A stretch of DNA of 64,000 nucleotides. It comes from Candidatus Izemoplasmatales bacterium. GTDB taxonomy: Bacteria; Bacillota_I; Bacilli_A; Izemoplasmatales; Hujiaoplasmataceae. Below the pieces are notes generated by a model that saw only the letters and a list, made by a program, of their open reading frames with translations, searched no databases and was not told the origin of the DNA. Position 1 is the stretch's first letter; each line of letters opens with the position of its first letter. The stretch is taken from positions 62,001 through 126,000 of the forward strand of contig JAQVVR010000003.1 of the NCBI GenBank assembly GCA_028698875.1, written 5' to 3'. This document shows positions 1-17,363 of the stretch, in pieces. The position numbers and the translations under genes were made by a program.

Positions 1-126
1 GCAAACAGTTCTTTCGACTGTGACAGTAGTATGCTGGTCAATAAACTTTTGAACATCGATAGCAATCTGCTTTGCTAATCGCCGTGAATCTTGAATCATG
101 TTTTGATCCAAATTGAGTTTATTCAT
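1..126 (-). CDS. kamD: Lysine 5,6-aminomutase alpha subunit, N-terminus only (partial at window edge)
   Basis: Only the first ~42 codons lie in the window; the gene runs off the left edge. The start is an ATG at 126 on the minus strand, overlapping the kamB stop by 8 bases. The visible peptide contains a KQIAIDVQKFI segment followed by HTTVTVERTVC, which resembles the conserved N-terminal helix and VERT motif of KamD, the B12/PLP-binding subunit that converts beta-lysine to 3,5-diaminohexanoate. Position after kamA and kamB fits the usual kam operon. kamE would be expected next, outside the window. Identification rests on a short stretch plus context. Confidence 0.8.
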   Translation of the reverse strand, partial: MNKLNLDQNMIQDSRRLAKQIAIDVQKFIDQHTTVTVERTVC

Positions 127-1117
127 TTTCATTCTCACTTTCAGCACCCACATTAAACAAAGGTGCATGCATTTTTTTCATTAACAATGATCGAAATTGG
201 TTTTCATCAAAAGCATAACCCGTTGGCGAATATGGGTTATAGCAGATTGCAACTAAATTCATCGGTCGCAAAACCATAATACCCATTTTTATACTCAAAA
301 GTTGTTTTAGTAACAGCCCAGAGACAACCAAATGAGCTGGATCACGGATAATCAAATCAAAATGAATTTGATTACGATTGCGAATCAATGATTCCGCAAA
401 CATGGGGCCGATTGCACCGGGGACAAACAACTGGCGGATCTCATCAAATGACTGTTGAAACAGATTCTGTTTATTTTGATCATCAATATCAAGTTGATGT
501 CGTAACCCTTGAGCATCAATTCCAGTGATTTTACGACAATCCTCAAGAAATCGATATTTGGGTTCAACCGCTGGCAACCGGAATTTTTGGACGATGGTCT
601 CACCATGATCGACGACCTTAATCATCTCATGAGAATAACTAGCACCAATTACCAAGATTAATGCATCTCCTAAGCGGGAAGATGCCAGCCGAGAAAAAGC
701 CCCGTCGATGAATATTTTGCTCACACCCAGATTAGAAAACATCTGAATCAGTTCTTCCATTTCCTTGACAGTTGATGGACCGGCAACCAAACCATTTCCT
801 GCCTTGGTGACTTCTAAAATTACTATTTCCCCCAAAGCTGAAGCGATTCCAGTGTGAACAATGATTGTTGCTTGGGCTTCCCATGCCGAAAGACACTCCA
901 TCGCCGTTGCCACTAGCATTCCCTTTTGTAAAGTGATTCTCGGTTTGGGCATGAAGGTAATCTGATCGATTTTTTCACCATCAAGGCCGATGGAAGTTAT
1001 GGCAATCAAACGATCAGAAAACAACCGTATTAAGTGATTTAAAACGGTAGTCTTACCGGCGTTTTTAGCATTACCAACGATGCTAATGGTAAAATGGTTC
1101 TCAAGTAATGTTTTTAT
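119..1117 (-). CDS. kamB: Probable lysine 5,6-aminomutase reactivase subunit KamB (P-loop protein), apparent AUA start
   Basis: The first ATG/GTG/TTG in this frame is a TTG at 1024, but it lies downstream of an in-frame P-loop (GNAKNAGKTT). Reading back to the in-frame TAG upstream, there is no ATG, GTG or TTG at all. An ATA at 1117-1115 has a GGAG about 9 bases upstream and overlaps the kamA stop as ATAA, exactly where an ATGA coupling would normally sit. Starting there gives 332 residues with Walker A at about residues 15-24. Between kamA and kamD, an ATPase-like protein is expected to be one of the KamB/KamC reactivase proteins that keep the B12-dependent aminomutase active; KamB is the better guess, by position. 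The unusual start could also reflect a base error in the assembly. Confidence 0.7.
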   Translation of the reverse strand: MKTLLENHFTISIVGNAKNAGKTTVLNHLIRLFSDRLIAITSIGLDGEKIDQITFMPKPRITLQKGMLVATAMECLSAWEAQATIIVHTGIASALGEIVILEVTKAGNGLVAGPSTVKEMEELIQMFSNLGVSKIFIDGAFSRLASSRLGDALILVIGASYSHEMIKVVDHGETIVQKFRLPAVEPKYRFLEDCRKITGIDAQGLRHQLDIDDQNKQNLFQQSFDEIRQLFVPGAIGPMFAESLIRNRNQIHFDLIIRDPAHLVVSGLLLKQLLSIKMGIMVLRPMNLVAICYNPYSPTGYAFDENQFRSLLMKKMHAPLFNVGAESENENE

Positions 1118-2373
1118 AGTTTTGAACTCCGTTCTCTTCTAACAAGGTGCTTCGGTTCTATGGCTGTCTGTTCGCCATTTAAAAGGCCGGAAACGCCACC
1201 GAGCCTCTCATTTTTGCATTGGTCGCACTGACAGTTTTGATAATCAGTTGGTTCGCTATATGTAGTGATGACGCCTTCGTAATTACGCAATACCGTTTTG
1301 CCAGGAGCTTGAGATAAGATATAATTTGGCATGACAGGAATTTTCCCACCACCACCTAAAGCATCAACCACATACGTGGGAACGCAATATCCACTGACAT
1401 GTCCCCGTAAACCCTCAATGATTTCAATCCCCTTAGAAATTGGGGTTCTAAAATGACCAATACCCATTGATAAATCACATTGGTATAAGTAATATGGACG
1501 GACCCGCATTTGGGCAAGACCAGTCACTAGTTTTCGCATCGTATGGACACAATCATTTACCCCTTTTAGCAACACGCTTTGATTTCCGAGGGGAATCCCA
1601 GCATCAGCCATTAAATCCAACGCCTTTTTGCTTTCCTGAGTAAATTCATTCGGGTGATTAAAATGCGTGTTGACCCAAATTGGATGATATTTCTTAAGCA
1701 TATTTACTAAATTTTCCGTTATTCTCTGTGGCATGACAACCGGAACCCGAGTTCCCAAACGGATTATTTCCACGTGTTCGATTTCTCTAAGTCTTTTTAT
1801 AATCGATTCTAAGTTCTGATCATCTAGTAACAATGCGTCGCCTCCCGATAACAAAACGTCACGGATTTGCGGGGTTTTCCGTATGTATTCAATGCCTTTA
1901 TCAATCCGTTCTTTCGACGCCATTCGGTCAGTTTGACCAGCAAAGCGTCTTCTAGTACAATGACGGCAATACATGCTACACATATCAGTTATCAAAAAAA
2001 GCACCCGATCAGGATAACGGTGAGTCAATCCTGGGACTGGCGAATCTTTGTCTTCATCTAGGGGATCAAGATTGTCGTTTACACCAACTATCAATTCCGA
2101 AATCCCAGGAATCGCTTGCTTGCGAATTGGACAATTGGGATCAAGCGGATCAATCAACGTTAGATAGTATGGTGTTATCGCCATCCGAAACTTAGTCAAA
2201 ACGTTTTCGATATCCGTTTCTTCTTCTTTAGTGATTTGTAAATATTTTTTCAAATCTCTTACTGACATAATCCGGTTTTTAACCTGCCAATGCCAATCAT
2301 TCCATTCAGCATCGGTTACAGTCGGAAAATACTTGATTTTTCTTTCTAAATATAAATCGTTGGTTTTTATCAT
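1114..2373 (-). CDS. kamA: Lysine 2,3-aminomutase
   Basis: Radical-SAM, PLP-dependent enzyme that converts L-lysine to L-beta-lysine, the first step of lysine fermentation. The 419-residue product has the cluster motif CSMYCRHC (Cys132, 136, 139), the PLP lysine in GGGGKIPVMPN (about K344), aspartates near 300 and 337 that match the substrate-binding pair of the clostridial enzyme, and a C-terminal CQCDQC that with a Cys near 275 fits its structural zinc site. Length equals the family norm (~416). The ATG at 2373 is preferred over one 7 codons upstream because AAGGGGG, which overlaps the last codons of kdd, sits 6-7 bases before it. It is 4 bases downstream of kdd. Confidence 0.97.
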   Translation of the reverse strand: MIKTNDLYLERKIKYFPTVTDAEWNDWHWQVKNRIMSVRDLKKYLQITKEEETDIENVLTKFRMAITPYYLTLIDPLDPNCPIRKQAIPGISELIVGVNDNLDPLDEDKDSPVPGLTHRYPDRVLFLITDMCSMYCRHCTRRRFAGQTDRMASKERIDKGIEYIRKTPQIRDVLLSGGDALLLDDQNLESIIKRLREIEHVEIIRLGTRVPVVMPQRITENLVNMLKKYHPIWVNTHFNHPNEFTQESKKALDLMADAGIPLGNQSVLLKGVNDCVHTMRKLVTGLAQMRVRPYYLYQCDLSMGIGHFRTPISKGIEIIEGLRGHVSGYCVPTYVVDALGGGGKIPVMPNYILSQAPGKTVLRNYEGVITTYSEPTDYQNCQCDQCKNERLGGVSGLLNGEQTAIEPKHLVRRERSSKL

Positions 2374-2377
2374 GGTG

Positions 2378-3418
2378 TTACCCCCTTGGTCCATATCGTT
2401 TCATAAATATTTGATATAGTATTGGTGATTCACGTAATAGATTCAATGTTAACTCAGCGTGCCCACTAGTATACCCATTGCCAATCATCAAAGTTGCTTC
2501 ACTGGCAACACCTTCTGCTCCAAGTGCTGCTTTGGTAAATGATGTTGCCATACTAAAGAAATACACGATACCAGAATTTTTCGTTGGCAGAATAGATGTC
2601 ATCTCGGTATCAATAACATTTACGTTATTAAAAGTAACGTCGACCTGTTGTCCGTTGTTGACTTCAAGAACCTTATGATAGATTTCCAAAGGATTGCGAG
2701 CATCACCTATGATAATTTCATCACAAGATTGAATGGCTTTTAAGTCGTCATACTGCGAAATATCGTTAATGACGCCGATGACCTTTCCGTTTGGTCCTGC
2801 ATTCTTTTTGGCTTGATATGTACATAATAATCCACTCTTGCCACCGGCACCAAGAATCAAGACGCTATCGTTTGGCTTGACTAGTCTTTCCACCTGAGCT
2901 GGAGCTCCGCAAACATCTAAAGCCGACAAAACAAGGATTTTGTCCAGATCAGCAGGTATTTTTGCATAGATTCCCGTTGCAAACAAGATTGCCTGGCCGA
3001 TAATGTCAACTTGGTCAGTATCCATGTGGATTGCGATTATTTTTTCGATTTTCAGAGGTGTGAGTGATAACGAAACAAGCGTAGCTATTTCATCACCAAC
3101 TACCACTTTTGGATGTAAATCTTTACCGATTTGTTTGATTGTTCCTAGTAGCATTCCTCCACTACCGGTCACTGGGTTTTGCATTTTTCCACGGGAATTG
3201 ACGATTTCCAAAATTCGGGCTTCCATCTGCTTTAAATCGCCATTACAAGCTTGATATATTTGATGGAATGAAGCCGAGTCAATATTAAGCGTTTTAACAT
3301 CAATTAATATTTCGTTTGCCTCACAAACCATATCATTATTGATTATTTGAGCTGCTTGTGGCAAAACACCAATCGGTTTAATAACCCGATGTGTACCATA
3401 GGGACAGAGTATCTTCAT
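2378..3418 (-). CDS. kdd: L-erythro-3,5-diaminohexanoate dehydrogenase
   Basis: NAD(P)-dependent oxidative deamination of 3,5-diaminohexanoate to 5-amino-3-oxohexanoate, the third step of lysine fermentation. The 346-residue product has a Rossmann glycine motif VLILGAGGKSG around residue 185-195 and the family's usual length. It lies between kce (2 bases upstream) and kamA, the order seen in other lysine fermenters. The last codons double as the ribosome site of kamA, so the two are probably translationally coupled. Confidence 0.93.
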   Translation of the reverse strand: MKILCPYGTHRVIKPIGVLPQAAQIINNDMVCEANEILIDVKTLNIDSASFHQIYQACNGDLKQMEARILEIVNSRGKMQNPVTGSGGMLLGTIKQIGKDLHPKVVVGDEIATLVSLSLTPLKIEKIIAIHMDTDQVDIIGQAILFATGIYAKIPADLDKILVLSALDVCGAPAQVERLVKPNDSVLILGAGGKSGLLCTYQAKKNAGPNGKVIGVINDISQYDDLKAIQSCDEIIIGDARNPLEIYHKVLEVNNGQQVDVTFNNVNVIDTEMTSILPTKNSGIVYFFSMATSFTKAALGAEGVASEATLMIGNGYTSGHAELTLNLLRESPILYQIFMKRYGPRG

Positions 3419-3420
3419 GA

Positions 3421-4248
3421 TTATTTTATCTCCATTCGTAAAATCCGTCTTGCTTCCTCGGGAGTCGCGATTTCACGACCTAATCGGGAGGCAATTTCAA
3501 CTACTTTGTGAACCAATTCGGCATTTGACTTTGCCAAAACACCTTTTTCAAGGTACAAGTTGTCTTCAAGTCCGACGCGAACATGGCCACCACATAAAAT
3601 CGCTTGTTCGGCAAGGGAAAACTCATATCTACCCACGCCAGCGACACTGAAAGTGGCATTATCCGGAATACTCTCTTTAAGAAACGCCAAGTCCCTAGTT
3701 TCACCACTCATACCCCCATTTACTCCTAAAACAAAACTAAAACGCAATGGTTGGGTAATGATTCCTTTTTTGACAAGTCGTAAGACTGTATCAACGTGTC
3801 CTTTTTCAAAACATTCTAATTCATAGGCTACTTGTTTGGCTTGCATTACTTTTGCAAAGTATATAATGTCATTCTCGGTATTGACAAAAATGTCATCACC
3901 GCCAAAATTAAGGGTTCCACAATCTAAAGTCGCCATTTCCGGATTAAGTGTTAGTGGCCCAAGACGCTCATCACGACTCATTCCCACCGCTCCACCAGTA
4001 GATACTTGTAAAATTACCTTTGGGCATTCTTTTCGAATGGCCGAAAGAATTTCTGCGAATCGTTTTGCATCTTGAACAGGAGTTCCATCATCTCTTCGCG
4101 CATGAATATGCAATACACTCGCTCCCGCTTTGACTGCCTCACAAGCAGAAACAACCATTTCATTGACAGTGTATGGAACTGCTGGGTTACCTTCCTTAGT
4201 CACTTCTGCACCGGTCATGGCGCAGGTTATAATAAGTTTATCGGTCAT
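3421..4248 (-). CDS. kce: 3-keto-5-aminohexanoate cleavage enzyme
   Basis: Zinc enzyme that condenses 5-amino-3-oxohexanoate with acetyl-CoA and cleaves it to acetoacetate and 3-aminobutyryl-CoA. The product is 275 residues when started at the ATG at 4248, which overlaps the kal stop as ATGA; a longer in-frame start inside kal is unlikely. The HIHAR motif (the two zinc histidines, near residue 46-48 in the family) and a C-terminal GLEDN with the third metal ligand Glu are visible, as is the conserved TCAMTGAE start. Context between kal and kdd confirms the role. Confidence 0.95.
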
Positions 4249-4625
4249 TTGCGCTGCAACTTCTTGGGTACGACACAAGTTCCCATAGCTGTCGCAACCA
4301 AGATTTTTGTTTCCAAAACCATGGCAGCCGAAGGGGCAACTTCCGGCTCAGCAGCAATTACTTTGTAACATTCAAAAACCATTTTTCTGGAAGTGTTTCC
4401 TGTACTAATAATTTCCCCATATACTTCAAGAAAGTCTCCAGCATAAACCGGTGCTAAAAAATCAATTTGTTCATAGGCGCGAAATAATCCTTCATCGCCA
4501 TCATTTTGGATTAATAATTCGGTAGCGACATCACCAAAAAGTGCTAATATTTTGGCACCATCAACGAGATTACCGCCATAATGAGCATCTGCAGACGACA
4601 TTCTTAGTCTTAACATTGTTTTCAT
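4245..4625 (-). CDS. kal: 3-aminobutyryl-CoA ammonia-lyase
   Basis: Small hot-dog-fold lyase that eliminates ammonia from L-3-aminobutyryl-CoA to give crotonyl-CoA. The 126-residue length matches known Kal proteins, and the N-terminal segment [16 protein letters not shown] is typical of this family. Both ends overlap neighbours by an ATGA (atoA upstream, kce downstream), which implies coupled translation. Assignment relies on family resemblance plus its place in the operon. Confidence 0.92.
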
Positions 4626-5269
4626 GATTCGACTCCTTTCATCACGTTAACGTGATCAATTATCAAAGTGGCTTCAGTAGCTTTCACAACATCCTCAATT
4701 GAGTAAGCAGGATGAACTTCAACGAGGTGTAATCCATCACTTTTGACTTCAATAACGGCCATTTCCGTTACAATTAATCCTACTTTTCGATATCCTGTCA
4801 AAGGAAGACGACATTTATGCAAAATCTTTGGTTGGCCTTTATTGGTATGTGACATCGCAATGATTACTTTTTTAGATCCAGTAACAAGATCCATAGCGCC
4901 GCCCATTCCCGGAACACGTTTTCCAGGAACAATCCAACTAGCAAGACTTCCTTCTTCATCAACCTCGAGTGCTCCTAACACTGTCACATCGACATGACCA
5001 CCTCGAATCAATCCGAAAGACACAGCTGAATCGATGAACGATCCTCCTGGATGAATTGTGGAACTGATACCGCCGGCGTTAACCAAATCAGAAATGGTTT
5101 CTGATACTGGGCCCACACCAATAATACCGTTTTCACATTGTAAAGTAATCCGTTTTTCCGGATCAATATAATCAGCGACAATAGTAGGAATACCAATGCC
5201 TAAGTTGACCAAATCGCCATTTTTTAATTCCAAAGCAATCCGTTTTGCTATGGTGAATTTGTCTTCCAT
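4622..5269 (-). CDS. atoA: Butyrate-acetoacetate CoA-transferase, beta subunit
   Basis: With AtoD, moves CoA from butyryl-CoA (or another acyl-CoA) to the acetoacetate released by Kce, giving acetoacetyl-CoA. The 215-residue product carries the catalytic Glu in CENGIIGVG (about residue 46) and the GGAMDLVTG motif of the SCOT-beta family. The start overlaps the atoD stop (TAATG), so the two subunits should be made in equal amounts. Confidence 0.95.
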
Positions 5270-5916
5270 TAGTTTTCCACCTCCAAGATATAATCAATCA
5301 ATGGATATGAAGTGATGACCTGCTCTGGATCAATTGTGTCAACAATTTCCCGCGGATCGACAATGACGATATCGGCAGCGGTAGCCATAATTGGATTAAA
5401 ATTTCGCATCGATTTGATATATCGAAGGTTGCCATATTGATCAGCTACCGCCCCGCCAATCAAAGCCATATCGGCGTGAAGCGGTTCTTCCAACAAGTAG
5501 CGTATGCCTTTTACTTCAATGATTTGTTTTCCGGTTTCGACCATCGTAGAAAGTCCTGTTGGGGTTAAAACCCCTCCCAATCCCGCGCCATCAGCCCGGA
5601 TTTGTTCAACTAAAGTACCTTGAGGCACTAGTGTCACTTTCATCTTGCCTTCTTGCATTAACGTTCCAACCGTTGGGTTGGTACCAATATGAGATGCAAT
5701 CAGGTGTTTGACACGACCAGCTACGATTAGTTTTCCCGATCCTGATGTTTCAAAACCACCGTCATTACAAATGATGGTTAAGTCTTTAACATCAGTCTCT
5801 AAAATAGCATCAATCAAGCGTTCGGGCGCTCCATTACTTAAGAATCCCCCAATCATGATAGTAATGCCATCTTTCAAAAATTGTTTAAATTCTGCTTTTT
5901 TAATGAATGCTTTCAT
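5269..5916 (-). CDS. atoD: Butyrate-acetoacetate CoA-transferase, alpha subunit
   Basis: Alpha subunit of the CoA-transferase encoded with the downstream atoA. The 215-residue product has the family glycine-rich segment [13 protein letters not shown] near the N-terminus and a [11 protein letters not shown] segment near residue 93; length is normal (~217). It is the second gene of the lysine operon, 9 bases after the MaoC gene. The ATG at 5916 follows an AAGGAGG. Confidence 0.95.
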
Positions 5917-5925
5917 GAAACCTCC

Positions 5926-6342
5926 TTATTTGGGCGGAATAATTACCGCTTCGCCAATCAATACGACTTCTTGGTTCTGGTTGGTAGCTACACAATCAAA
6001 GACAACCCGACCGCGATCAAAAATCAACTCTTTGACTGTGACTGTGGCAGTGATTTCGTCATTCAAATACACTGGTTTAGTAAATTTAAGTGTTTGATTT
6101 ACATAGATGCTTCCTAGTCCAGGAAGCTCGGTTCCAAAAATAGCGGAAAATAACGACCCAACAAGCATGCCATGGACGATTCGGGTTTTAAACATCGTCG
6201 TTGCGGCATATGTCTCATCTAGATGAGCAGGGTTGATATCTCCTGTGACTTTCGCAAAACCCAAGACATCACTTTCTGTGAATTGTTTAGTCATGTGAGA
6301 ACTATCGCCAACATGCAAATCTGTAAAGGGAATCTTATTCAT
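5926..6342 (-). CDS. MaoC-like (R)-specific enoyl-CoA hydratase
   Basis: First gene of the lysine operon. The 138-residue single hot-dog protein has the hydratase motif GDINPAHLD (Asp and His catalytic pair at about residues 34 and 39) and GMLVGSLFS, as in PhaJ. It would reversibly hydrate crotonyl-CoA to (R)-3-hydroxybutyryl-CoA. The start is set at 6342 because AAAGGAG lies 5 bases upstream; an ATG 5 codons earlier overlaps that ribosome site. A hydratase is not part of the textbook lysine pathway, which reduces crotonyl-CoA to butyryl-CoA, so here it may open an oxidative branch. Confidence 0.85.
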   Translation of the reverse strand: MNKIPFTDLHVGDSSHMTKQFTESDVLGFAKVTGDINPAHLDETYAATTMFKTRIVHGMLVGSLFSAIFGTELPGLGSIYVNQTLKFTKPVYLNDEITATVTVKELIFDRGRVVFDCVATNQNQEVVLIGEAVIIPPK

Positions 6343-6355
6343 GGTTTCTCCTTTC

Positions 6356-6386
6356 AAAAAAAAAAGTTATATTTTGTCAATATAAC
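6356..6386 (-). terminator. Intrinsic terminator of the lysine riboswitch (expression platform)
   Basis: On the minus strand GTTATATT and AATATAAC form an 8-bp AT-rich stem with a short GACA-type loop, followed by ten T residues (6365-6356), directly before the Shine-Dalgarno of the first operon gene. Its 5' arm shares its first bases with the 3' strand of aptamer helix P1. Confidence 0.8.
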
Positions 6387-6546
6387 AGCTCTCCATATTA
6401 CATGGCAGTAGACCGGCACTCACCGGGATACCAAGCAGCACACTGTGAACGGTTGTGCTCTTTCGGCAACGGATCTCTTCTTGTTATCGCTTCTAAGGTT
6501 CACCTTATTAACATCAATAACAATACCGATTCGTTGCGCCTCTGTG
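6382..6546 (-). promoter_or_regulatory. Lysine riboswitch (L box) aptamer
   Basis: On the minus strand the leader contains the L-box hallmarks in order: AGAGGCGCAA at the P1/P2 junction (6541-6534), a GTTGCCGAA segment in the middle, and ACTGCC...ATGGAGAGCTGT at the 3' end, comparable to the TGTC...GGAGGGCTATC end of the B. subtilis lysC leader. ACAG (6545-6542) pairs with CTGT (6388-6385) as helix P1. Spacing (~165 nt) is normal. It lies between a consensus promoter and the lysine-fermentation operon, so it very probably senses lysine. Confidence 0.88.
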
Positions 6547-6576
6547 TTCATGAAATTGTGATTAAATCTATATTTA

Positions 6577-6605
6577 ATTATATATGAATATGAAAGCGTT
6601 GTCAA
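6577..6605 (-). promoter_or_regulatory. Consensus sigma-70 promoter of the lysine operon
   Basis: TTGACA (6605-6600), a 17-base spacer and TATAAT (6582-6577) on the minus strand, both hexamers perfect. Transcription would begin around 6570, about 25 bases before the lysine aptamer. A perfect promoter suggests that control lies mainly at the riboswitch. Confidence 0.9.
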
Positions 6606-10760: not shown

Positions 10761-10789
10761 AAAGCATCGGCTGCCCGATGCTTTTTTTT
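10761..10789 (+). terminator. guaD terminator (convergent with ygeW)
   Basis: AAAGCATCGG, a three-base loop and CCCGATGCTTT followed by a run of T residues on the plus strand. It reaches into the ygeW stop codon. The minus-strand reading has a stem but a poorer T tract. Confidence 0.85.
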
Positions 10790-11771
10790 ATTTGTCGCCA
10801 ATTGTCATTGCCATGACTGCTTTGGCTGTATGAAGCCGATTTTCCGCTTCACGATAGATGATTGAATGCTTGCCGTCGATAACCGCGTCTTCAACTTCAT
10901 TACCGCGATCGGCAGGTAAGGCATGCATATAATAAACATTTGGACTAGCCAATGCCATCATTTTTTCTGTGCATTTCCAGCCTCGATTTTTCTCGAGTAA
11001 ATCATCAATTACATCTTTTGAAGTGTTAGTTACCCAACTACCCCAATTTTTAGGAATGACAACATCAGCACCTTGAAAAGCTTCCTCCATATTATGCGTG
11101 ATTCTAAATGATCCCCCATTTTCTTCGGCGTTTTGCTTGGCTTTGGTAATCGCCCAGTCAGGAAGTTCATAGCCATCAGGATATGCCAAGGTGACATCCA
11201 TCGCATATCTAGGGAACAACAGAATTTGACTCAAGGGAACACTAATTGGTTTTTTATGGCTGGTCGCATACGCCCAAATAATGGAAATCTTGAGATGTTT
11301 GGTGCTCGGTACGACTTCTTGAATTGTCATCAAATCAGCCAAAGCTTGCATAGGATGATATAAGTCATCTTGTAAATTAATAATTGGCACTGTTGAATGG
11401 GCTGCCATTTCACGAAGATACTTATTGCCAATTTGCCAAAAGCAATTACGACAAGCAATTCCATGTCCGTAACTCGATAAAATGGTAGCGGTGTCTTTGG
11501 GGCTTTCTCCATGAGCAAGTTGCATTGTCGATGTATCTAAATACGTTGCATGCCCACCTAATTCGGTCATTCCCGATTCCATGGAATTTCTCGTTCTCGT
11601 TGATTGTTCAAAAAACATTAGGAAAATCGATTTATCACGCAAATAAGGTGTCGGTTTGTTATTTCTGAATCGCTCTTTTAAATCACAAGACACTTCTAAA
11701 AGCTTATCAATTTCTGGCTTAGTCCACTCTTCTAATGTTATGAAATGCTTTCCTTTAAATAACGGCTTCAT
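10788..11771 (-). CDS. ygeW: Knotted carbamoyltransferase YgeW
   Basis: Member of the ATCase/OTCase superfamily found in anaerobic purine-degradation clusters. The 327-residue product carries the carbamoyl-phosphate loop FFEQSTRTRNS (about residues 53-63), HPMQALADL and the C-terminal YMHALPADRG motif, all as in YgeW. In reverse it would phosphorolyse a carbamoylated product of purine-ring opening to carbamoyl phosphate, which the carbamate kinase at the other end of the cluster can turn into ATP. The start overlaps the ygeY stop (TAATG). It is the last gene of the operon. Confidence 0.95.
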   Translation of the reverse strand: MKPLFKGKHFITLEEWTKPEIDKLLEVSCDLKERFRNNKPTPYLRDKSIFLMFFEQSTRTRNSMESGMTELGGHATYLDTSTMQLAHGESPKDTATILSSYGHGIACRNCFWQIGNKYLREMAAHSTVPIINLQDDLYHPMQALADLMTIQEVVPSTKHLKISIIWAYATSHKKPISVPLSQILLFPRYAMDVTLAYPDGYELPDWAITKAKQNAEENGGSFRITHNMEEAFQGADVVIPKNWGSWVTNTSKDVIDDLLEKNRGWKCTEKMMALASPNVYYMHALPADRGNEVEDAVIDGKHSIIYREAENRLHTAKAVMAMTIGDK

Positions 11772-12994
11772 TATTTTTCCTCCCGATGATTAATTTGGTT
11801 AAGATACATAATTGGCATTGCGGCATACATCGCAGCTGCCATCACTAAATCTGCTTTAAACGTTTTTTCATTTGGTGCATGTGCTTCTTCCTCGTTGCCT
11901 GGCCCAAAACCGATGCAGGGAATTCCAAAACGCCCCATAATCGATACTCCATTTGTCGAAAATGTCCACTTATCCACAATGGGTTCCCTTTTAAAAAGTT
12001 GCCGATAACTTTCTATCGCTGCTTGGCAAACGGGATGATCCTTCTCCAAAACCCAAGTGGGAAAATACGATTTTGTCGGATAAACTAATCCCGTATATGC
12101 TGGGCGGGCATACTCATACATATTCACAGTAGCGTTTGCTTTTGTAACTGAAGGCAATGCTAAAATCTCGGCAATCGCACTTTCAGCAGTTTCTCCCACC
12201 GTTAATCGCCGATCAATCGACACCGAGCAACCATCTGCGACGGCACATCGAGAAGGAGAGGAATAAAATATTTCCGAAACAGTTAAAGATCCTTTACCCA
12301 AAAACTTATCGTCAGCAAGATGCTTATGCAATTCCTCTAGTTCACTCAGGATAGGGGCCATTTTGAAAATAGCATTTTCTCCGCGTTCTGGGGCACTTCC
12401 GTGACAAGATACACCCATGGTAGAAACTTGAATTTCCATCCGACCTCGGTGACCACGATATATGCGACATGATGTTGGTTCAGTTATAACCACAAATTCT
12501 GGACGAATCTGATCTTTTTCAATGATGTATTGCCAACATAAGCCATCGCAGTCTTCTTCTTGGACTGTACCGGTGATAAGCAAAGTATAATCATCTTCTA
12601 GGCGTAAATCTTTGATAATCTTTCCAGCATAGACCATCGAAGCCATTCCACCTTCTTGATCAGAACCGCCTCGTCCACCAATCGTTTTATCATCTTCGTA
12701 CCCTTCATATGGATCAAAATTCCAAAGTTTTATTTCGCCAATACCAACTGTATCAATATGAGCGTCCATTGCAATTAGATGTTTGCCATGACCAATCCAA
12801 CCCATGACATTACCCATTGGATCGATTTCTACTCGATCGAAGCCAACTTTTTCCATTTCGGTTTTGATACATTGAACTACCGCTGCTTCATGACAACTTT
12901 CCGAAGGAATTTTGATCATGTTGCGCAAAAAGCGGGTCATATCATCTCGATATGCTTGAGCTTTTTGGAGTATTTCTATCATATTTAATTTCAT
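11771..12994 (-). CDS. ygeY: YgeY-type M20 metallohydrolase
   Basis: Peptidase-M20-family amidohydrolase linked to purine degradation and selenium-metabolism clusters. The 407-residue product has the metal ligands in [12 protein letters not shown] (about residues 73-84), the [10 protein letters not shown] motif, VQEEDCDG with the catalytic Glu pair, and TEPT. AAGGAG lies 8 bases before the ATG at 12994. It probably hydrolyses an amide or ureido intermediate just before or after the carbamoyl transfer by YgeW; the exact substrate cannot be read from sequence. Confidence 0.93.
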
Positions 12995-13006
12995 ATTTTA
13001 ATCTCC

Positions 13007-14362
13007 TTACCTAGATTTCTTAATCAACTCATCGTAATGATGAATTTTTTGGTATTCCAAATCCCAAAAGTCCATATTTTTCATTGAATCAAGATATTGT
13101 TTTGTATAGCCGAAAGGGAGCCAATCCTTTTCTTTTTGCGCGAATAATTTTGCTTTTTGATCATCCATTCGGTAATCAGCGATATCTTCAGTTCCGTTTT
13201 TACGGAAAATATCATTAAACCAACGATTTAAAACATATGGCTCTAATTCTAGGTATCGGGTTTTTAAGTTTTCAATGACGCTATCATAACGATCAAATCC
13301 ATCTGTGGCAATAGTTACGACATTTTCATTTGGTCCTAAATGAAGATATTTAGCCATTTTGATAGCACCAATGATGTTGCATATTGTCGATACGCCAAAT
13401 AAGTCTTTCATTGCTTCTGCAATCGTTCTATCTACCCCATTATTAACAAGGATATCCGTTCCATCGTGGATTATTTTTAAGCCTCTTACGGCATCATCGT
13501 CTTTGATTAACACGATAAAATCAGTAGTCAAAACGTTGTGAATCAGTGTACACATCTTATCACCAATGCCCTCAATTCGATGTTGACCACGGCCACCATT
13601 CATCAACGTTGAACATTCATATGGTTCCAAAGCCGCGATTTTCGCCTCTGGAAAAGATGATTTGATATTGTCCCCTGCCGCTAAAGTTCCAGCACTTCCA
13701 GGTGCTGAAGTAAAGCATGCTATCCGGCCGTTGCCAATTCCTTTAACCGCTTCAACAGCGCTTCCGCCTGTCACATGACGATGGAAACGGTAATTAGGCA
13801 TTAATTCAAACTGTGCCAAGGGTCGAAAATCAGGATTCTTTTTTAACTCATATGTTCTTTGTAAAGTCAAGATTACATCAGATTCAGTACCAGGAGTTAA
13901 ATCAAGTTTTGCCCCATACTTTTTGATGCGTTCATAGCGTTCTTTGGACATGTTATCAGGCATAATGACAATTGCATCATATTTCATTAAGTTACAGATG
14001 TACGATACCCCAATTCCAAAATTACCGGTTGATGGGCCTAAAATCGTATGTTTTCCTGGAATAATATTGCCATCGATGCAACCTTCGATTAAAGTCGAAT
14101 ATGCCGGCCCAACCTTATGCGATCCCGAGGGGAAATACTTACCAAGCAATACCACAATATTAGCTTCAACACCAGTAAGTGCTTTTGGTAAAACAATTTT
14201 GTTTACTTCGTTGAACTCATTTTTCCAGGTAATGTTGAACAGATTAATCGGATCAAGTTCGTTTTTTGCTTTTGCAGCCAATGCTTGCGTGCGAACCGAT
14301 TTTTCAATCTTATCAGGATGAAGCATTTCTTCGTAAGTTGGACCGAATGGAATTTTGTTCAT
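13007..14362 (-). CDS. Fold-type II PLP-dependent enzyme (cysteine synthase/tryptophan synthase-beta family)
   Basis: 451-residue PLP protein with the Schiff-base lysine in SGSHKVGPAYS (about K83), the phosphate-side Ser/Thr loop LGPSTGNFG, and a C-terminal ATDG motif. It takes the position where the diaminopropionate ammonia-lyase gene ygeX lies in E. coli, next to ygeY and ygeW, but it is longer (451 against 398) and lacks YgeX's KMLGGAYA-type lysine context. It overlaps the threonine-synthase-like gene by an ATGA. I infer a role in deaminating or cleaving an amino-acid product of purine-ring opening; the true substrate is unknown. Confidence 0.7.
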   Translation of the reverse strand: MNKIPFGPTYEEMLHPDKIEKSVRTQALAAKAKNELDPINLFNITWKNEFNEVNKIVLPKALTGVEANIVVLLGKYFPSGSHKVGPAYSTLIEGCIDGNIIPGKHTILGPSTGNFGIGVSYICNLMKYDAIVIMPDNMSKERYERIKKYGAKLDLTPGTESDVILTLQRTYELKKNPDFRPLAQFELMPNYRFHRHVTGGSAVEAVKGIGNGRIACFTSAPGSAGTLAAGDNIKSSFPEAKIAALEPYECSTLMNGGRGQHRIEGIGDKMCTLIHNVLTTDFIVLIKDDDAVRGLKIIHDGTDILVNNGVDRTIAEAMKDLFGVSTICNIIGAIKMAKYLHLGPNENVVTIATDGFDRYDSVIENLKTRYLELEPYVLNRWFNDIFRKNGTEDIADYRMDDQKAKLFAQKEKDWLPFGYTKQYLDSMKNMDFWDLEYQKIHHYDELIKKSR

Positions 14363-15612
14363 ATTGACACCTCTTTGTCTTTTTTTTCCATATATTGGAT
14401 AAATTCCTGTAAATTGGGTTTCATGATAATTGGCGATCCTGCCGCTTTTACAGCATTGGCTGGATCCTTAAGTCCATTTCCCGTCATGATGATGACTACG
14501 GTATCAGTCGATTTGATAATACCATCTTGGATAGCTTGTTTTACTCCGGCAACCGAAGCAGTCCCTGCCGGCTCACCAAAGATTCCTTCTGTTTTACCCA
14601 GTAACTTCATTGCCGCTAAAATTGCCTCATCAGATACTGCTATCCATGTTCCTTGTGATTTGCTTACGGCGTTAATGGCTTTTTGGGGATTACGAGGAAT
14701 TCCAACAGAGATACTATCGGCAATTGTATTTTCTGCCACCTCTTGAAGATATCGTTTTTGCTTAAACGCCTCCACAAACGGCGCACATCCTGTACTTTGA
14801 ATGCCTAATATTTTCGGGATTTTGTCAATCATTCCTAATTGATAAAAATCAAAAAATCCTTTATAAACTCCTGCAATCGTACAGCCATCGCCTACCGAAA
14901 CCGCCACCCAATCTGGAACTTGAAAATGCATTTGTTCGGCGATTTCGAGTGCAACAGTTTTTTTACCCTCGACTAAGTGAGGATTAATGGCGGCATTCCG
15001 ATTGTACCAATGGTAATGGTCAATTGCTGCTTTAGATAGATTGAAAGCATCTTTATAATCACCATCAACAGATATAACGGTAGCTCCAAAAACCATCAGT
15101 TGAGCTAATTTCCCCAGTGGTGCTCGTTTGGGAACAAAAATGACACTTTTAAGTCCCATTCGAGCTGCGTTTCCCGCTAAACTGGAAGCAGCATTTCCTG
15201 TGGATGCACAGGCAATCACTTTTTGACCAATTTCCATGGCCTTAATCACTGCCACACCCGAAGCCCGGTCCTTAAGCGATGCGGTTGGATTTAATCCTTC
15301 ATCTTTAACATACAAATTCTTTATGCCTAAGATATCTCCTAAATGAGGGGTATTATACAATGGTGTCCAACCAATTTTTAATGTTGGGAGTAGTTTTGTG
15401 TCTTCGACACTCATCATTGGCAAATACCGCCACATCGTATAATCAGAATTGTTTTGGAAATAAGTGGGAGACACAATTTTTTTCATCTTGTCATAATCAT
15501 AATTTATCTCCAAAACCCCTTTTTCTCCGCAAAGGGGGCAAGTCAATAAATCCGCGCGTGCTTCAAACACCTTGTGGCAAAGAGTGCATTGATAGTTCTT
15601 TACAAAATTCAT
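14359..15612 (-). CDS. Threonine-synthase-like PLP enzyme with N-terminal zinc ribbon
   Basis: 417-residue fold-type II PLP enzyme. The N-terminus has a CxxC...CxxC rubredoxin-like ribbon (about residues 9-32), followed by the Schiff-base lysine in NPTASLKDRAS and the ASTGNAASS loop, which are the threonine-synthase signatures. The ATG at 15612 overlaps the ade stop as TGATG, with GGAAGG upstream; a TTG one codon earlier is possible. True threonine biosynthesis genes (hom, thrB) are absent nearby, and its location inside a purine-degradation operon suggests it works on a catabolic intermediate instead. Confidence 0.75.
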   Translation of the reverse strand: MNFVKNYQCTLCHKVFEARADLLTCPLCGEKGVLEINYDYDKMKKIVSPTYFQNNSDYTMWRYLPMMSVEDTKLLPTLKIGWTPLYNTPHLGDILGIKNLYVKDEGLNPTASLKDRASGVAVIKAMEIGQKVIACASTGNAASSLAGNAARMGLKSVIFVPKRAPLGKLAQLMVFGATVISVDGDYKDAFNLSKAAIDHYHWYNRNAAINPHLVEGKKTVALEIAEQMHFQVPDWVAVSVGDGCTIAGVYKGFFDFYQLGMIDKIPKILGIQSTGCAPFVEAFKQKRYLQEVAENTIADSISVGIPRNPQKAINAVSKSQGTWIAVSDEAILAAMKLLGKTEGIFGEPAGTASVAGVKQAIQDGIIKSTDTVVIIMTGNGLKDPANAVKAAGSPIIMKPNLQEFIQYMEKKDKEVSI

Positions 15613-17333
15613 CAAATCAATCCTTCTTCCACTTCGAGAGGAATAAATGCAAATTTAGTCACATCAAACAGCCCTTTGTCGGAAAGTTTGATTTCGGGAA
15701 TTACCATCAGTGATAAAAACGCCAATGATAAAAACGGATCTTCATGAATGGTTTTTACTCCCATTTTCCGAGTAACAGAAACCATATCATTGAGTTTTCT
15801 AATTACGATTTCCGCTTTGGCATTTGTCATAATACCGCCCACTTCAAGAGACAAGTATTCGATCACCTCATGATGACGTACAATGACAATGCCACCATCA
15901 ATTTTTTTGATGGTTTCAATGGCAAGCTGCATATCAGAATCGTTATCACCCAAGACAATCAAATTATGGGAATCATGAGAAATAGTCATCGCTATCGCCC
16001 CATTTGTCAACCCATAACCGCGGACCAAACCTAATCCCACATTGCCAGAGTAATGGTGACGTTCGATAACAGCCAGTTTTAAAATATCGTCGTTTGGATT
16101 ATTTACATATAGTCCTTGTTCAACCTTAACTTTAGCAATACTCTTCTTGGTTGTCGCATTGTTGGGAATTAAATCAATCACATTGACCAAATTATGATTA
16201 AGTGAGATATTCAAGTTAATTATAGAATTTTTTATTTTGACTGTCTTGGTGACAAATCCATTCAACATTATTTTCGTATCAAACAAAGCTTTTCCATTAT
16301 TAGCGACAATCTGACCTTTTTTAAATACCATTTCCGGCTCAATTTGGTTGAGGTTATCAAACACAATCATATCAGCGAAATATCCTGGAGCGATCCCGCC
16401 ATATCCTTTAAGCTTATAACACTCAGCAGTATTAATCGTTGCCATGCGAATTGCCATAATTGGCGATATTCCGTTTTTAATTGCCAAATTTACATTGTAA
16501 TTAATATGTCCTTCTCGAACAATATCCTCTGGATGTTTGTCATCAGTGCAAAACACAAGTCGTCGATGGTTATCAAGTGTATAGCCTTGAAGAAGCGCTT
16601 TTTCGTTTCGTGTATGCGACCCTTCTCGTAACAATACATACATGCCCCTAGCAACCCGCTCTTCAAGTTCTTGATAAGTTGTGCACTCATGATCGGTCTT
16701 AATGCCAGAAAGAATATATGCATTCAAATCAGGGCCAGTTAAGCCCGGCGCGTGACCATCAACATTCCGATCTTGCATAATTGATATCTTTTCATGTATG
16801 GTTGGATCACCTGACAAAACATCGGGATAATTCATCACTTCACCTAGACCGGAAACATTGTCAAGAAGTTTCATTTTTCCGATATCATTTGCAGTAATGA
16901 CATCTCCTGAAGTCTCAAATATGGTTGCTGGAACACAAGAGGGAATCATCATAAAAACATCCAAAGGTGTTGCCTTAGCGGCATCCATTAAGAACCGAAT
17001 GCCCTCAACTCCATTTACATTGGCAATTTCATGTGGATCAGCGATTATGGAGGTTGTCCCCTTAGGCATAATTATTTTGGCAAATTCCGGTGGTGTAAGC
17101 ATGGAACTCTCAATATGAACATGACCATCAATAAAACCGGGAGCAACATACTTTCCCATTAAATCCATTTCTTCGTAGCCTTCATACTCTCCAATTCCCA
17201 CAACCAAACCGTCTTCAACAGCAATGTCTTTAGTCTCGATCAATCCCGAAAAAACGTTAACTATGCGCCCATTTTTCAGGACAAGAGCGGCTTTTTCGAT
17301 TTTTCTTGCGACTTTTATTAAATCAATGTTCAT
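15612..17333 (-). CDS. ade: Adenine deaminase
   Basis: Converts adenine to hypoxanthine and ammonia. The 573-residue protein has the amidohydrolase metal motif GFIDGHVHIESSMLTP near residue 74, TDHECTT, FCTDDKHPED and a C-terminal adenine-deaminase domain with LVRGYGLTNGAIAMT. Length is normal for the Ade/YerA family (~575). The ATG at 17333 follows GAGGGTGAG by 3-6 bases and is preferred to one 8 codons earlier. It supplies hypoxanthine to the xanthine dehydrogenase encoded just upstream. Confidence 0.95.
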   Translation of the reverse strand: MNIDLIKVARKIEKAALVLKNGRIVNVFSGLIETKDIAVEDGLVVGIGEYEGYEEMDLMGKYVAPGFIDGHVHIESSMLTPPEFAKIIMPKGTTSIIADPHEIANVNGVEGIRFLMDAAKATPLDVFMMIPSCVPATIFETSGDVITANDIGKMKLLDNVSGLGEVMNYPDVLSGDPTIHEKISIMQDRNVDGHAPGLTGPDLNAYILSGIKTDHECTTYQELEERVARGMYVLLREGSHTRNEKALLQGYTLDNHRRLVFCTDDKHPEDIVREGHINYNVNLAIKNGISPIMAIRMATINTAECYKLKGYGGIAPGYFADMIVFDNLNQIEPEMVFKKGQIVANNGKALFDTKIMLNGFVTKTVKIKNSIINLNISLNHNLVNVIDLIPNNATTKKSIAKVKVEQGLYVNNPNDDILKLAVIERHHYSGNVGLGLVRGYGLTNGAIAMTISHDSHNLIVLGDNDSDMQLAIETIKKIDGGIVIVRHHEVIEYLSLEVGGIMTNAKAEIVIRKLNDMVSVTRKMGVKTIHEDPFLSLAFLSLMVIPEIKLSDKGLFDVTKFAFIPLEVEEGLI

Positions 17334-17363
17334 TAGCTCACCCTCTCTGGTTTGCACATCGAG

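What the first reader, a model, noticed from the sequence alone, without database searches (positions are those of the whole stretch)
6356..6605. Lysine riboswitch wired as a likely ON switch for a lysine-degradation operon
The sequence shows a perfect promoter, an L-box-like aptamer and a terminator hairpin before a complete lysine-fermentation operon. Characterised L boxes mostly shut off biosynthesis or uptake. Here the 3' strand of P1 (CTGT at 6388-6385) overlaps the 5' arm of the terminator stem, so lysine-stabilised P1 should block terminator formation and turn the operon on. That is the logic a catabolic operon needs. L boxes upstream of lysine-degradation genes may already have been described in comparative studies; the ON mechanism in this host is inferred. 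The P1 helix is short (four clear pairs), which fits tuning for high lysine.
Basis: partly seen in the sequence, partly recalled or inferred. Interest (0 to 1): 0.8.

Follow-up and report, generated by a model that had tools for sequence, protein, structure and literature searches.

The report
Lysine ON-switch before lysine-fermentation operon
A lysine-sensing RNA sits in front of a complete set of genes for eating lysine and is built so that lysine should turn those genes on; this is a solid new example of a kind of switch already predicted by others, here shown to be shared by a whole order of bacteria and combined with a likely sugar-responsive brake.

Summary
Rfam places a lysine riboswitch (RF00168, 67 bits, E 2.4e-15) at 6552-6378 minus, behind a 12/12 sigma-70 promoter. 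It precedes a complete lysine-fermentation operon: MaoC hydratase, CoA-transferase A/B, kal, kce, kdd, kamA, kamB, then kamD/kamE beyond the window. The ON reading is well supported. In the window's order (apparently Izemoplasmatales), 46/46 riboswitches before this operon have a terminator whose 5' arm contains P1's 3' strand. 0/52 before transporter, lysA or M20 genes do.

Two details need correction. The window's terminator is the weakest of the 46: it lacks the 3' clamp, and only G6386-U6385 of P1 lie in the stem. A 4-bp P1 is usual here, for ON and OFF copies alike, so it does not argue for tuning to high lysine.

The wiring is not new in kind. ON lysine riboswitches, and lysine riboswitches before kal/kce genes, are in the 2003-2017 literature.

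New here: a consensus cre (CcpA site) lies on the -35 box (44/44 fermentation promoters), whereas transporter-type leaders carry cre-like sites upstream of -35 at ~10.5-bp steps. This suggests lysine and carbon status act with opposite signs on lysine use and uptake. No experiment was possible.

The parts
6577..6605 (-). sigma-70 promoter, -35 TTGACA 6605-6600, 17-nt spacer, -10 TATAAT 6582-6577
   Evidence: 12/12 match; same promoter at 44/44 readable fermentation leaders, 11-12 of 12
6590..6605 (-). cre-like site TTGACAACGCTTTCAT overlapping the -35 box (candidate CcpA operator, repressing position)
   Evidence: 0 mismatches to the published consensus WTGNNARCGNWWWCAW (PMC3463425); 2 matches in the window, 0.35 expected by chance; motif directly after TTGACA in 44/44 fermentation promoters. 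CcpA binding is inferred.
6378..6552 (-). lysine riboswitch aptamer, RF00168
   Evidence: 67.1 bits, E 2.4e-15, full model
6542..6545 (-). P1 5' strand ACAG
   Evidence: CM alignment, outer two consensus pairs not formed; P1 length 4
6385..6388 (-). P1 3' strand CUGU; its G6386-U6385 are also the base of the terminator 5' arm
   Evidence: sequence
6356..6386 (-). terminator hairpin GUUAUAUU/AAUAUAAC plus ten-U run
   Evidence: core -4.6 kcal/mol, weakest of 46 homologous terminators (median -15.1) but longest U-run
6348..6354 (-). ribosome-binding site AAAGGAG, outside the hairpin
   Evidence: sequence
5926..6342 (-). MaoC-like hydratase, first gene of the operon
   Evidence: PF01575, 1.7e-21
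5269..5916 (-). CoA-transferase subunit A
   Evidence: TIGR02429/PF01144
4622..5269 (-). CoA-transferase subunit B
   Evidence: TIGR02428
4245..4625 (-). kal, 3-aminobutyryl-CoA ammonia lyase
   Evidence: NF052388 above cut-off
3421..4278 (-). kce, 3-keto-5-aminohexanoate cleavage enzyme
   Evidence: NF052387 above cut-off
2378..3418 (-). kdd, L-erythro-3,5-diaminohexanoate dehydrogenase
   Evidence: NF052381 above cut-off
1114..2394 (-). kamA, lysine 2,3-aminomutase
   Evidence: TIGR03820 above cut-off
119..1024 (-). kamB, lysine 5,6-aminomutase reactivase; kamD/kamE follow outside the window (L032:5571-7169, 4841-5596)
   Evidence: NF052386 above cut-off; NF052384, NF052385

Best explanation
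A transcriptional lysine riboswitch of the direct ON type. Without lysine, the short P1 gives way, its 3' strand joins the downstream stem, and transcription stops at the U-run. With lysine bound, P1 is held, the base of the terminator cannot form, and RNA polymerase reads on into the lysine-fermentation operon. Above this, a cre-like operator on the -35 box probably lets CcpA/HPr-Ser-P shut the promoter when a preferred carbon source is present, so the operon would need lysine present and catabolite repression off. Shown here: aptamer, promoter, operon, stem geometry, conservation, motif. Inferred: lysine binding, direction of response, CcpA binding.
For: RF00168 match. Complete operon. Terminator 5' arm contains P1 3' strand nucleotides in 46/46 fermentation leaders against 0/52 others (Fisher p 5e-29 ignoring phylogeny). 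Six further leaders show the same design (two of these aptamers seen by eye only). Pairing of P1's 3' strand with the terminator 3' arm is kept through one-sided wobble changes, and the upper stem shows two-sided changes A-U/U-A/G-C. With P1 forced, the leftover hairpin is a median -1.9 kcal/mol, -1.8 in the window. ABC-transporter leaders of the same order have a detached terminator whose 5' arm can pair with P1's 3' strand, the classical OFF layout (31 of 52 leaders). No dapA or lysA in the window's genome, so biosynthesis is not the target. The same overlap occurs in Vallitalea, Clostridium and Flavonifractor kal/kce/kdd leaders.
Against: No biochemical data. The window's copy lacks the 3-nt clamp that relatives carry before the U-run, and has the weakest terminator of 46 with only a 2-nt overlap. 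The relatives share ancestry, so 46/46 is not 46 independent events. The CcpA-like protein in the genome scores 242 bits, below the CcpA cut-off of 442, although HPr kinase is above its cut-off. The MFE of the window leader places P1's 5' strand elsewhere, which may be a limit of the model.
Confidence: 0.82

Rival explanations
1. The window's copy has decayed: the shortened hairpin terminates poorly, so the operon is read nearly constitutively, or under cre control only, and lysine has little effect.
For: Hairpin core -4.6 kcal/mol, lowest of 46 (next -10.1), 3-nt clamp missing; generic terminator scan does not pick it up.
Against: It has the longest U-run of the set (10), the conserved aptamer core and a 12/12 promoter. 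The 8-bp stem is still present and still mutually exclusive with P1.
Confidence: 0.14
2. Ordinary OFF lysine riboswitch that shuts the operon when lysine is high.
For: Most described L boxes work so; 54 other lysine riboswitches were found in the same order, and those with a detectable terminator have it detached from P1.
Against: No room for an antiterminator: the only hairpin before the gene uses P1's own 3' strand, in 46/46 fermentation leaders. OFF logic on a fermentation operon makes no metabolic sense.
Confidence: 0.02
3. Control acts on translation or mRNA stability rather than termination.
For: The ribosome-binding site lies directly after the hairpin (6354-6348).
Against: The site is outside the hairpin; a U-run follows the stem in the relatives, as in terminators.
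Confidence: 0.04

Closest known systems
Lysine riboswitches upstream of lysine catabolic genes (C. sticklandii kal-kce, F. nucleatum kal, T. tengcongensis/T. wiegelii pspF3-kal-kce; Mukherjee, Barash and Sengupta 2017, PMC5584792)
   Same: Same aptamer class, same pathway, same stated positive regulation
   Different: Here a MaoC gene leads the operon, the order is a different one, and the terminator/P1 geometry is compared systematically with OFF copies
ON lysine riboswitches noted by Barrick and Breaker 2007 (PMC2258182), citing Rodionov et al. 2003
   Same: Ligand binding buries part of the terminator stem, no separate antiterminator
   Different: The 2003 paper itself is not held here, so its loci and details could not be compared
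Adenine (pbuE) and glycine (gcvT) ON riboswitches
   Same: P1 and terminator share a strand, so ligand gives readthrough (own knowledge; the class is named)
   Different: Other aptamers; gcvT is a two-aptamer switch
B. subtilis lysC L box (OFF)
   Same: Aptamer class
   Different: Separate antiterminator, opposite sign (own knowledge); that layout is what the ABC-transporter copies in this order resemble

Membership tests
Lysine riboswitch (RF00168) | Covariance-model match above the gathering score | tested here: met
   67.1 bits against 30
Lysine riboswitch (RF00168) | Five-helix junction with conserved core (AGAGG.GC, GCCGAA, UGG, CUG.CA, UGGAG.GCU) | tested here: met
   CM alignment, all 182 positions; only the two outer P1 pairs and a few stem pairs not standard
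Lysine riboswitch (RF00168) | Selective lysine binding | not testable with these tools
   needs in-line probing or ITC
Transcriptional ON riboswitch | Terminator stem shares a strand with the ligand-stabilised helix, no separate antiterminator | tested here: met
   2 nt in the window, all of P1 in 40 of 46 loci
Transcriptional ON riboswitch | Functional terminator in the ligand-free state | tested here: inconclusive
   hairpin plus ten U present, but core -4.6 kcal/mol and weakest of its set
Transcriptional ON riboswitch | Ligand raises readthrough | not testable with these tools
   needs single-round transcription
Lysine fermentation operon (kamADE-kdd-kce-kal) | All pathway enzymes present by curated models | tested here: met
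   the MaoC role is inferred
CcpA cre site | Match to WTGNNARCGNWWWCAW at a promoter | tested here: met
   0 mismatches at 6605-6590
CcpA cre site | CcpA and HPr-Ser-P system in the genome | tested here: inconclusive
   HPr kinase above cut-off; LacI-type protein 242 bits, below CcpA cut-off 442

The most novel reading that the evidence does not exclude
Within one bacterial order the same two signals act with opposite signs on lysine use and lysine uptake. The fermentation operon has an ON lysine riboswitch and a cre site on the -35 box (repression). The transporter-type leaders have OFF-type lysine riboswitches and cre-like sites centred about 19, 30 or 40 bp upstream of the -35 box, in ~10.5-bp steps, as expected for helix-face-dependent CcpA activation. 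Flipping the expression platform and moving the operator would switch the sign of both inputs.
Probability: 0.5. Interest if true: 0.55.

Novelty: new member of a known kind. Interest (0 to 1): 0.4.

Why it matters
ON lysine riboswitches are stated in the literature mainly from comparison; no experimental proof was found in the papers searched here. The order surveyed here offers a natural matched set: about 50 ON and about 50 OFF-type copies of one aptamer class, sorted by target gene and often in the same genome. That makes the rule for reversing riboswitch sign directly testable. The cre finding adds a carbon-status input of opposite sign. The window's lineage appears to lack lysine synthesis and to live partly on lysine and glutamate fermentation.

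Tried and rejected
Short P1 as tuning for high lysine: rejected, since 3-5 bp P1 is common in ON and OFF copies of the order. Generic terminator scan: does not list the hairpin because it asks for 3 G-C pairs. A first terminator search allowing long structures gave spurious overlap in five OFF copies and missed two ON copies; restricting it to compact hairpins removed both errors. A two-state energy calculation that forbade P1 pairs returned zeros and was discarded; it was replaced by forced-P1 versus free folding. The apparent lack of the switch in some kdd-bearing genomes was mostly a filter effect: of six checked, 4 were recovered with permissive settings and the other two show aptamer and terminator by eye. 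Archaeal or Bacteroidetes spread: no RF00168 match within about 6.5 kb upstream of kdd in the Lokiarchaeota, Butyricimonas, Cetobacterium, Marinitoga, Brevinema and Romboutsia loci tested. Rodionov 2003 is not held.

Full report
What is there. A full-model Rfam match to the lysine riboswitch lies at 6552-6378 on the minus strand, 67.1 bits, E 2.4e-15. It follows a 12/12 promoter, 6605-6577, and an upstream terminator-like hairpin at 6725-6703 separates it from the previous gene. After the aptamer come a hairpin with ten U, an AAAGGAG ribosome site and the ATG at 6342. The genes that follow are a MaoC-type hydratase, CoA-transferase A and B, kal, kce, kdd, kamA and kamB. Outside the window come kamD and kamE and then a glutamate mutase/methylaspartate ammonia-lyase set. 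It is the only lysine riboswitch found in the 88%-complete assembly, and neither lysA nor dapA was found. Supply of lysine from outside is therefore likely, though missing sequence cannot be excluded.

Which organism. The order is therefore most likely Izemoplasmatales. This rests on matching contig lengths and the close kdd relatives, not on a formal classification.

Test of the ON logic. 71 of the 90 genomes carry RF00168 matches. I fetched 99 of these relatives' matches, oriented them, added the window and sorted all 100 by the downstream gene: 46 lie before the fermentation operon (window included), 54 before other genes. Those examined are ABC substrate-binding proteins, lysA and M20 amidohydrolases. 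In all 46 fermentation leaders the terminator 5' arm includes nucleotides of P1's 3' strand, in 40 the whole of P1. In none of the 52 others with a detectable terminator does it; there the terminator starts 15-42 nt downstream. In 31 of those 52, mostly the transporter leaders, P1's 3' strand can pair with the terminator 5' arm better than with most shuffled arms, which is the usual antiterminator of an OFF switch. The lysA and M20 leaders do not show that simple pairing, so their mechanism is left open. The sequence record supports selection on the shared strand: the pairs between P1's 3' strand and the terminator 3' arm are kept with wobble changes, and the upper stem varies on both sides.

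Out-of-sample check. kdd occurs in 57 of the 90 genomes. 43 of these have the switch by the strict search. The three genomes with the switch but no kdd hit have short contigs that end within about 3 kb downstream. I fetched six kdd loci that seemed to lack the switch. Four have RF00168 with permissive filters, and all six leaders show a terminator overlapping the CUGU strand (one has CUGG, and the aptamer of the last two is seen by eye only). G020, same genus, lacks both kdd and riboswitch.

The window's own copy. Most relatives read ..AAUAUAAC-(A/G)GC(U/C)-UUUU; the window reads AAUAUAAC-UUUUUUUUUU. Its 3' clamp is gone, the overlap shrinks to G6386-U6385, and the core hairpin is -4.6 kcal/mol against a family median of -15.1. 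The U-run is the longest of the set. With P1 held, only a 6-bp A-U stem (-1.8 kcal/mol with flanks) remains, so the two states still exclude each other, but termination without lysine may be leaky. A decayed switch is the main rival.

P1 length. Four pairs is the commonest value in ON copies (39 of 46), and 3-5 is the commonest range in OFF copies. The suggestion that it fits tuning to high lysine has no support.

Carbon input. TTGACAACGCTTTCAT at 6605-6590 matches the B. subtilis cre consensus WTGNNARCGNWWWCAW (PMC3463425) without mismatch; 0.35 such sites are expected by chance in the 64 kb. The motif follows TTGACA in 44 of 44 readable fermentation promoters, 31 of them without mismatch. 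In the other leaders no best cre match overlaps TTGACA. Instead, cre-like sites of lower stringency are centred 18.5-19.5, 29.5-30.5 or 40.5-41.5 bp upstream of the first base of the -35 box (35 of 40 sites at score 11 or more). The same paper states that cre sites upstream of -35 activate, promoter-overlapping ones repress, and that the effect depends on the face of the helix. HPr kinase is present and a CcpA-like LacI protein is present below the CcpA cut-off. The motif score threshold was chosen by me, and 11% of shuffled leaders reach it somewhere; it is the clustering of positions that is unlikely.

What is known. Barrick and Breaker 2007 state that certain lysine riboswitches with ON logic bury pieces of terminator stems, citing Rodionov 2003. 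Mukherjee et al. 2017 report lysine riboswitches before kal/kce in C. sticklandii, F. nucleatum and Thermoanaerobacter and call the regulation positive. The 2003 paper was not available. No experimental demonstration of an ON lysine riboswitch turned up in the searches made, which is not proof that none exists. The finding is therefore a well-supported new member of a known kind; its order-wide ON/OFF split and the cre arrangement are what go beyond it.

Noticed in passing
window 6590-6605 (-) and upstream regions of relatives: cre-like site on the -35 box of the fermentation promoter (44/44), versus cre-like sites phased at ~10.5-bp steps upstream of the -35 box in transporter-type leaders.
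   Followed up: partly
L157 3609 onward; L161, L151, L166 downstream of the aptamer: In Vallitalea the hairpin using P1's 3' strand contains TGAAAATAAGATTTCA, an exact inverted repeat of the following terminator (TGAAATCTTATTTTCA); similar but less exact in Clostridium. Suggests a second layer of antitermination.
   Followed up: partly
L184, L193, L208 downstream of the aptamer: In Flavonifractor the aptamer's 3' end GAAGCGCTAT is repeated after the first terminator and begins a second terminator arm; P1's 5' strand could pair with either copy.
   Followed up: no
L032:173-4734 (G000:C2, just outside the window): The kam genes run directly into methylaspartate mutase S-GlmL-E and methylaspartate ammonia-lyase, i.e. 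lysine and glutamate fermentation genes in one same-strand run.
   Followed up: partly
window 10788-17357 (-): Cluster with a carbamoyltransferase, YgeY-family hydrolase (TIGR03526, 686 bits), two PLP enzymes and an adenine-deaminase-like protein (from its sequence, not searched), resembling anaerobic purine/amino acid degradation clusters.
   Followed up: no
L145 544-712, L203 1705-1878: Cobalamin riboswitches about 3 kb upstream of the lysine riboswitch in two Acholeplasmataceae MAGs, next to a B12-dependent pathway.
   Followed up: no
L214 and L218 leaders: Aptamer and overlapping terminator are visible by eye but RF00168 does not report them at E 0.01, so divergent copies are missed by the family model.
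   Followed up: no
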